From Psococerastis gibbosa (lineage: Eukaryota; Arthropoda; Insecta; Psocodea; Psocidae), in the NCBI GenBank assembly GCA_963971405.1, contig OZ020489.1:22780290-22844289 (forward strand): DNA of 64,000 bases, read 5' to 3'. The position numbers and the translations under genes were made by a program. Under the pieces are notes generated by a model that did no database searches, was not told where the DNA came from, and saw only the letters and a list, made by a program, of their open reading frames with translations. This document shows, piece by piece, positions 19,201 to 22,200 of the stretch. Positions within the stretch are counted from its first letter, which is position 1. Every line of letters begins with the position of its first letter.

Positions 19201-22200
19201 ACAAATGTAAACAAACAAATTTTGAATAGCACTTTCCATTATATTTTTTTTTTAATAATCATAACGCAACGCCCTTTGGGGCTTACACGTTGTATGTTTA
19301 TGTGTAGCAATGCTGTGGTTTTGGATGTGGTGTGGTGTGCACTATCGTTTTTTCGGCAAACTGCTATAAGCGCGCTGGACAACGAGTTGCCCAGGTACCA
19401 TCTACAACAGTAAAATTATCTTATTTACATTTATAATACCAGGGGATTAAATAAATACCGGTATTATAATCGCCATGATCAGGCTGCTGGCAGAGCTGTG
19501 TTGTGTGGGGCAATAAAAAAGTATCAATGCGGATGGTAAGCTCAGATAGAAGTTACGGGCTGATGCTGATTATGTTAGAATTTTACGAATACTGTAGTCT
19601 GCACAGAATTTCAGCTGTTATCGATTAGATAAAAAGTTTTAATTCCATATTTCGGTTTGAAAATAATGCTATGAACTTACGGCACAGATCCAGTGAAGTT
19701 GAGTCCAGCAAAATCAGGGCTTGCTGTGACATTATCGCCAAAAACAGGACCATCAGCGGGTACGAAGTTGACCACCCCTGCTGGCACGCCCGCTTCTGTG
19801 CAGATCTGGTAGATAATGTAATTGGAGAGCACAGCAGTGTCAGAAGGTTTCCAAACAACGCCATTTCCCTGAAAAATGATAATTTAATAACTAGGTCTAA
19901 TTTGATTGAGTTCACAGTGGAGTAATTAGATAAAAAGTATTGTAGGCCTGAAGGATCGAATGTGTCAAAGCGTAAATTAAATACTGAGGCTCAGTACCCA
20001 ACATCCAAACACTGTCATCAAAGCGGCCAATGGGCCTCATTCATAGAGGGAAAATGTTTGCTGCCAAACAATCAGATCATCGGCTCAACAGTGCCCAACC
20101 AATAATAAAATTAGGGCATGACGACATTTCTCTATGGATTTTTAGAATACATTTTAATATGATATGATCCGACAAACCGGTAATCTTCATAAATCATACA
20201 GTATGTTAGCACTAATCTCTACTTTGTCAACTCCGTTAAATTCAATTTGATTACTATTAAAGCATTACACACATTTCTGTAAATTTTGAGCGAAGACCGA
20301 AGTATTTGAAGCAGCCTAAGGCCCGGCATGGGCTGAGAAATTTTTCATGGGAGCAAAACCTGGCGAAACCGAAGTCTTTTGCAGAAGATTTTATCTGCGA
20401 TGTACCAGCGACAAACCAGCTACAAAAATCTGCTGCAGTGGACGGCGGTTTCGCACCATTTTCCATTTGCTCCCAAGTCAAATTTCTCAGCGGATCACTG
20501 GCGACCGAATCGTTCGTGTGTACCGGGCCTAATAATATCTAGAAATAAACAGGCGTCCCGTTACCATGAGCGCCGACTCGTATCTGTACTGGGTTAAGTC
20601 ATGCTTTTGCCTATTTCCTATTTATTTCCTAATTAAAAAAAGGTTAAATCGCGTACAAACAATTTAATGAATGTATCCGATTAACCTCTTCAATCGCCTC
20701 ACTTACTTACTTACTTTTACTTTTTCCGCACCATTTCCTCATGGAGGGTCGGCGGCAGAGCTGCGGCGTTTCCAAACGTTTCTGTCTTGCGCGTCCTTCC
20801 TTATGAGCCCGGTTTCTTGCAGGTCGCTTACAATTTTCCTCTCCAGGGTGAGCTTTGGGCGCCCACGTGCTCGGCGTCCAGGTACCATCGCCTCTCCCAC
20901 TCTGCGTATAAGCGCTGATGCCTCTCTCCTTTGCACGTGTCCCCACCAGCTGAGCCTCTTCCCTCTTAGTTTTTGCACTACGTCCGTTGTTCGCATTTCT
21001 TCCCGAATGTCCTCGTATCTGCGCCTGTCATTTAATGTTACGCCACATGCCTCCCGAAGCATCCTCATCTCCGCTACGTGGATCACTTGTTCCTCGCGTT
21101 TACGCACGGCCTAACACTCAGCGCCATATATCATACATGGCCTGACCACTTGTTTGTATATGCGACTTTTCAATTTCTTTGGCATCCTTCTGTCAGTCAG
21201 GACCGCGGACATCTCTCGAAACTTGGCCCACCCCGCAGCAGTACGCGCCTTCACATCGTCATCGCACCCTCCGTTTTCGCCAATCGTGCTGCCTAGGTAC
21301 TTAAATTTCCCTACTTTGTTTAGCTGATGGTTACCAACGCTTATGCTACTGGGAGTCTGCTTAACGCACTCCATGTATTCTGTCTTGCCTCTGTTGACCT
21401 TTAGGCCTTCGTCGTCCAGCGTTTTCACCCATTTGGCTAGCTCAGCTTCCTGTCGGCTTTCTGTACTTATTACAACGTCATCCGCGAAAAGAAGGCTCGC
21501 TGGGGCTTCGCCTTGGCTATGTTTGGTCACCGTGTCCATTATAATAACAATCGCCTCACTAAGTCACCTAATAGGTACTTGTGTCGAAGCGGAATTACGA
21601 CACGTCTCCGACCGCAAGGTTTGTAGAGACTCGCACGCACAAGCACTCTACCACCTTGCCACCGAAGTTCGAAGTCGCCTGTTTCATTGCGTCAATGGTA
21701 AGCTTGTCTCAGCTTGTCCATTATCGATTATAGCCAGTGTAGGTTGACATCAAGAACGCATACCAGTTTACCAATGGCCAAAAATTACAAATATAATTAC
21801 CATGAGCGCCGGGGCGTAAGCCAGATTCCCTCCAATTGCAGTGAAATTAAAGGGAGAGACTGCGGCAATGAATCCGTCCATGCCACGGAATCGCATGGAA
21901 TTAAGGGTAACTTGTGGGTTTTCACTAATTGGTTGATATTTTGCAGCTTCTTTTGCAAAATAAGCATTGAATCTGGAATAACAGGAAAACACATCAGATT
22001 TAGGAATAAAAACAGGGTCACGACTATCTGGCATCAGCTCGTTCCCAGGATGGCGATTGGATTTGAAAACGCATAGGCCACGGTGTGTCTACGATTACGC
22101 GACTATTCCACCGACGTCGTTTTTCACTGTACATGTGCATGACGTGGTAGCAGACATCGTTAATAAGTCTCTGCCATATTTTAAGGAGACTATAATGTAG

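What the first reader, a model, noticed from the sequence alone, without database searches (positions are those of the whole stretch)
20561..21811. A SINE landed across a splice donor and its TSD duplicated the splice site
TTACCATGAGCGCCG is present at 20561-20575 and 21797-21811. The second copy is the last 11 coding bases of P5CDh exon 5 plus the donor GTAA (minus strand). The bases just inside the two copies are the 5' and 3' ends of a SINE-like family found at least six times in the window. The insertion therefore cut through the exon/intron border, and target-site duplication left a full donor on the exon side and an identical decoy 1.24 kb further into the intron. Splicing was saved by the TSD itself. 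Use of the decoy would retain the whole insertion.
Basis: partly seen in the sequence, partly recalled or inferred. Interest (0 to 1): 0.82.

Follow-up and report, generated by a model that had tools for sequence, protein, structure and literature searches.

The report
Retroposon insertion duplicated a splice donor
A short mobile DNA element jumped into the exact border between an exon and an intron of a proline-breakdown gene, and because insertion copies the target, the splice signal survived beside the exon with a twin 1.2 kb away; a tidy example of a process already known from other genes.

Summary
TTACCATGAGCGCCG occurs exactly at 20561-20575 and 21797-21811 and nowhere else in the 409-Mb genome. 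The right copy is the last 11 coding bases of a P5CDh exon plus donor GTAA (minus strand); the spliced peptide aligns to solved P5CDh chains without a gap at the junction. The 1,221 bp between the copies is not one SINE but three nested insertions: a truncated short retroposon (153 bp in two pieces), split by an A-tailed SINE (202 bp), split by an 844-bp LINE-like fragment. The left edge coincides with the family's left end; the right edge does not coincide with its right end: this copy lacks about 100 bp. The 15-mer is still best read as a target-site duplication (14 or 15 bp). The intron existed beforehand. The working donor is a hybrid: GTAA from the duplication, bases +5 onward from the retroposon. 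Whether the distal donor is used cannot be tested here; its use would add 412 codons, 10 of them stops. The canine merle SINE, with a 15-bp duplication over a splice acceptor, is a direct precedent.

The parts
21801..21972 (-). The 5' border near 21972 is approximate
   Evidence: ORF 21768-22088; in-silico splicing; spliced peptide matches P5CDh chains
21797..21811 (-). Proximal (presumed working) copy of the duplication: CGGCGCTCATG (exon) + GTAA (donor)
20561..20575 (-). Distal copy of the duplication, with decoy donor GT at 20564-20563; base 20575 may be the element's own first base
20576..20617 (+). Outer short retroposon, left piece; starts at the family's conserved left end (G)ACTCGTATCTG
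21686..21796 (+). Outer short retroposon, right piece; ends ...GGCCAAAAATTACAAATATAA, lacking about the last 100 bp of the family
20609..20617 (+). Duplication around the middle SINE, left copy GCCTATTTC
   Evidence: sequence; overlap of the outerL and outerR matches (9 bp at 88410-88418, 11 bp at 44262-44272)
21677..21685 (+). Duplication around the middle SINE, right copy GCCTGTTTC (8 of 9 identical to the left)
   Evidence: sequence
21561..21676 (-). Middle SINE, 5' part (tRNA-like head by eye only), sense strand = gene strand
20618..20703 (-). Middle SINE, 3' part with A-rich tail
20704..21547 (-). LINE-like fragment, reverse-transcriptase-like, with an (AAGT)n-type 3' end; no second copy in the 264 kb looked at
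   Evidence: RVT_1 match E 1.7e-5, 25.1 bits, below the 29.6-bit cut-off; boundaries from the 13-bp repeat
20691..20703 (+). Duplication around the LINE fragment, left copy CAATCGCCTCACT
21548..21560 (+). Duplication around the LINE fragment, right copy CAATCGCCTCACT
   Evidence: three LINE-free copies of the middle SINE carry this stretch once (midL and midR matches overlap by 13, 13 and 11 bp)
19869..20560 (-). Rest of the original intron beyond the decoy (692 bp; 696 with GTAA), showing that the intron predates the insertion

Best explanation
A short non-LTR retroposon (SINE-like, truncated at its right end, probably antisense to the gene) inserted by staggered-nick, target-primed reverse transcription across an existing exon/intron border of P5CDh. 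The duplicated 14-15 bp held 11 exonic bases and the donor GTAA. One copy stayed joined to the exon and is the presumed working donor; the other stayed joined to the old intron 1,236 bp further on. Later an A-tailed SINE landed in the retroposon and a LINE fragment landed in that SINE. Splicing is predicted to go on from the proximal donor, whose bases +5 onward are retroposon sequence. Shown: the repeat, the nest, the family's left end, the junction and the open protein. Inferred: the insertion mechanism and the element's sense strand. Not shown: which donor is used in RNA.
For: The 15-mer is exact and occurs only twice in the genome; 0 of 20,000 control pairs reach 15. The left copy abuts the conserved left end of a dispersed family: base -1 is G in 11 of 12, while columns -2 to -12 have no base in more than 8 of 12. 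Two family members have their own, different flanking repeats: 10 bp exact (copy at 12399-12643) and 11 of 12 bp (copy at 49719-50198), i.e. variable lengths as retroposons give; published human Alu/L1 insertions in NF1 had duplications of 6-17 bp (PMC3219598, passages). The spliced product matches P5CDh over the junction. 692 bp of other intron lies beyond the decoy. The nested layers carry their own duplications.
Against: The right end is truncated relative to the family (10 of 13 others hold the missing part). If the family's sense is the + strand, as its ATT-rich right tails suggest, this is a 3' truncation, unusual for target-primed reverse transcription; if the sense is the - strand it would be ordinary 5' truncation, and I could not settle this. 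Only 3 of 15 copies examined, this one included, show a convincing flanking repeat. No orthologous empty site was available. A crude U1-pairing score does not single out the donor: 9 of 110 GTs in the intron score better than either copy.
Confidence: 0.88

Rival explanations
1. A staggered double-strand break at the exon/intron border was filled in (making the 15-bp repeat) and a fragment of the retroposon was captured as filler DNA, without retrotransposition. The donor would be saved in the same way.
For: The copy lacks about 100 bp of the family's right end, which fits capture of a fragment.
Against: The left edge is the family's own left end to within about 2 bp; a randomly captured fragment would seldom start there. 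The right edge is A/T-rich and could have been an internal priming site; 2 of 13 others (the most diverged ones) also stop near there.
Confidence: 0.1
2. Intron creation: the element made this intron and co-opted the duplicated target as a splice site, as Introners do.
For: A splice site lies in the duplication, as in several Introner families (PMC9860276, passages).
Against: The second copy of the target is not at the downstream exon: 692 bp of other intron (19869-20560) separates it from the acceptor.
Confidence: 0.02
3. The distal donor is used in part, giving a longer transcript that retains the insert and is degraded, so the insertion tunes P5CDh output. (This adds to the best explanation rather than replacing it.)
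For: Same donor core; 1,236 bp is divisible by 3, but the retained stretch has 10 stops in 412 codons, the first after 10 codons.
Against: Predicted U1 pairing is no better distally (-5.0 against -5.1 kcal/mol; 5 against 6 of 9 consensus matches). No RNA evidence.
Confidence: 0.06

Closest known systems
Canine merle SINE in PMEL (PMC7349775; passages seen)
   Same: A SINE inserted at an intron/exon border in reverse orientation, flanked by a 15-bp target-site duplication; the original splice site stays next to the exon.
   Different: There the site is an acceptor, the family is a tRNA-derived SINE whose poly(A) tail length alters splicing, and there is a coat phenotype. Here it is a donor, the element is truncated and nested, and no effect is known.
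Introners (PMC9860276; passages seen)
   Same: A mobile element whose duplicated target supplies a splice site.
   Different: Introners create new introns and most families there show a signature of DNA transposition; here the intron was already there.
Doc1053 intron gain in Drosophila Dsec\GM26034 (PMC3296678; passages seen)
   Same: A retrotransposon with target-site duplications at or near an intron's edges (that Doc is a non-LTR element is recalled).
   Different: There the insertion alone formed the intron.

Membership tests
SINE (outer element) | Dispersed short family with a fixed end | tested here: met
   15 other copies in 264 kb (14, plus one at 31888-31986 seen) and a right-end fragment at 185378-185424 of the joined sequence; left end fixed to within about 2 bp
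SINE (outer element) | Target-site duplications of variable length | tested here: met
   14-15, 10 and 12 bp (one mismatch) for 3 of 15 copies examined; nothing convincing in the other 12
SINE (outer element) | A-rich or simple-repeat tail at the family's 3' end | tested here: inconclusive
   Long copies run into A/T-rich, often ATT-rich tails; this copy stops about 100 bp short, in A/T-rich sequence
SINE (outer element) | Internal RNA polymerase III promoter, tRNA/7SL/5S-derived head | tested here: inconclusive
   ARAGORN finds no tRNA in the window; no Rfam match on the element; no clear A/B boxes by eye
SINE (middle element) | Dispersed copies, tRNA-like head, A-rich tail | tested here: inconclusive
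   10 other copies aligned, 8 of 10 with A-rich tails; box A-like TGGCAAGGTGGTAG by eye, from memory of the motif; ARAGORN finds no tRNA in the consensus
LINE (inner element) | Reverse-transcriptase coding sequence | tested here: inconclusive
   RVT_1 E 1.7e-5, but 25.1 bits is under the 29.6 cut-off; the other piece has no match; FADD motif recognised from memory
Splice-site-duplicating insertion of the merle kind | Target-site duplication spans a splice site of an existing intron | tested here: met
Splice-site-duplicating insertion of the merle kind | Altered splicing or phenotype | not testable with these tools
   No RNA or phenotype data
Introner | Insertion creates the intron | tested here: not met
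   692 bp (19869-20560) of other intron beyond the distal copy

The most novel reading that the evidence does not exclude
The insertion turned one donor into two competing ones, the working one now partly written by the retroposon (+5 onward), and partial use of the distal donor makes stop-containing transcripts that set the level of P5CDh.
Probability: 0.05. Interest if true: 0.45.

Novelty: new member of a known kind. Interest (0 to 1): 0.25.

Why it matters
It is a clean worked case of how a retroposon can be tolerated exactly on a splice border: the target duplication rebuilds the signal. It also shows that the rebuilt donor is a chimera whose +5/+6 bases come from the element, so such insertions can change donor strength. 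As a single case without RNA or relatives it settles no open question.

Tried and rejected
Rejected: one intact SINE (three nested layers instead); intron gain by the element (intron remainder beyond the decoy); chance repeat (0 of 20,000 controls); a microRNA reading of the Rfam MIR4371 match at 22120-22295 (64.9 bits against a gathering score of 110; the stretch is a large inverted repeat).

Led nowhere: a DNA search of the whole genome for the insert did not complete, so genome-wide copy number is unknown; the tool states that no relatives of this genome are held, so no empty site. Paper searches: 4 of 4 listed; 20 of 217; 10 of 166; 7 of 7; 12 of 46; 12 of 15. Among the titles and abstract openings listed I saw no case of a splice donor duplicated by a SINE insertion, but the library is open-licence only and I opened only four papers, passages only.

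Rows dropped: two disrupted copies (at 97515 and 102432 of the joined 264 kb) were left out of the alignment, which holds 13 of the 15 other copies known plus this one. One search examined 15 copies, this one included, without the one at 31888-31986 (looked at, no repeat found). The divergence values at the end include flank columns and are not used; the core values are. My second notebook entry supposed that the family's sense might be the minus strand; I now lean to the plus strand because of the ATT-rich right tails, but this is not proven. Weaker candidate repeats printed for other copies (7-10 matches in A/T-rich or misplaced stretches) were not accepted.

Full report
Observation. The 15-mer is exact at 20561-20575 and 21797-21811 with no other match at up to two mismatches in the window and no other exact match in the 409-Mb genome. 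Random pairs of points 1,221 bp apart never shared 15 exact bases within 40-bp windows (0 of 20,000; maximum 12, once). The repeat is real and is not chance.

The gene. Minus-strand ORFs around it encode delta-1-pyrroline-5-carboxylate dehydrogenase: a neighbouring exon matches P5CDh chains (best E 1e-34). Joining the exon ending at 21801 to the exon beginning at 19868 gives ...[21 protein letters not shown].... The 121-aa joined peptide aligns end to end with P5CDh chain 8rkq_A (E 3.5e-45); the only gap is two residues well before the junction. The donor is therefore ATG|GTAA, and the right 15-mer is 11 coding bases plus GTAA.

The insert is a nest. BLAST of its parts against the window plus 200 kb of the same chromosome separates three layers. 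Outer: 20576-20617 and 21686-21796 (153 bp), found as one continuous element elsewhere, e.g. at 44233-44373. Middle: 20618-20703 and 21561-21676 (202 bp), a dispersed SINE on the gene's strand with A-rich tails in 8 of 10 other copies aligned, flanked by GCCTATTTC/GCCTGTTTC. Inner: 20704-21547 (844 bp), flanked by CAATCGCCTCACT on both sides. Three LINE-free copies of the middle SINE carry that stretch once: the matches of its two halves overlap by 13, 13 and 11 bp. The inner piece looks like the end of a LINE reverse transcriptase (RVT_1 E 1.7e-5, under the curated cut-off) and has no second copy in the 264 kb. The lengths add up: 153 + 9 + 202 + 13 + 844 = 1,221.

Do the family ends coincide with the 15-mers? 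Left: yes. Base -1 is G in 11 of 12 readable other copies, and columns -2 to -12 have no base in more than 8 of 12. Since base 20575 is also G, the duplication is 14 or 15 bp. In the two other copies with flanking repeats, one or two bases lie between the repeat and GACTC, so the end is fixed to within about 2 bp. Right: no. Of 13 other copies aligned, 10 hold the part ...GGGACC...AAAAAGTCC and an A/T-rich tail that this copy lacks. Of the other 3, the two most diverged (at 36770 and 31990) stop near the same place and the one at 44231 runs some 25 bp further. The copies at 12399-12643 and 49719-50198 have flanking repeats of 10 bp (exact) and 12 bp (one mismatch) at the long ends, so the long form is the full length. 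This copy is truncated by about 100 bp. Internal priming in the A-rich stretch is a plausible cause if the + strand is the sense; ordinary 5' truncation if the - strand is. Capture of a fragment at a staggered break is the rival.

What it does. The intron is older than the insertion: the distal copy is followed by 692 bp of other intron (19869-20560), including a small inverted-repeat element, before the acceptor. The old border is the distal copy with its downstream GTAACGGGACG, unless that has since changed; the working donor is exon plus GTAA from the duplication followed by element sequence (GTAATTATATT). By simple measures the two are about equal: -5.1 against -5.0 kcal/mol with U1, 6 against 5 of 9 consensus matches. 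The U1 measure is crude: 9 of the 110 GTs in the intron score better than either. Using the distal donor would keep the frame length (1,236 = 3 x 412), but 10 of the 412 added codons are stops, the first after 10 codons. Ordinary use of the proximal donor is the likeliest outcome, since the protein junction is the conserved one. No RNA was available.

Age. The outer copy differs from the family majority at 10 of 138 core positions. The oldest duplication has no mismatch in 15 bp although two later insertions followed; with so few bases, one copy of them under coding and splicing constraint, this sets no useful date.

How surprising is it? A 15-bp duplication leaves about ten phases in which a donor core falls whole inside it. 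With an assumed 160,000 donors in 409 Mb, roughly 0.4% of random insertions would do this. The density seen here (16 copies in 264 kb, this one included) extrapolates to some 25,000 genome-wide, so dozens of cases could arise by chance. These are rough assumptions, not measurements. The canine merle SINE is a published counterpart at an acceptor, also with a 15-bp duplication (PMC7349775, passages). Introners and the Doc1053 case show splice sites at target duplications when introns are made (PMC9860276; PMC3296678; passages only).

Verdict. It is a new member of a known kind.

Noticed in passing
20317-20532: Small inverted-repeat element 20320-20529 (GGCCCGG...CCGGGCC) flanked by TAA on both sides, 31 bp from the distal 15-mer; looks like a MITE with a 3-bp target duplication.
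   Followed up: partly
22099-22314: Large inverted repeat, about 84% self-complementary, in the intron upstream of the exon; gives a sub-threshold Rfam MIR4371 match (64.9 bits, gathering 110). Related pieces recur nearby.
   Followed up: partly
49719-50198: Another copy of the outer family, split by a different insertion of roughly 230 bp beside a repeated CATACCAG; nesting is not unique to the P5CDh copy.
   Followed up: partly
12389-12653: A long member of the outer family, 245 bp with perfect 10-bp flanking repeats GGCATGTTCA; useful as a reference copy.
   Followed up: yes
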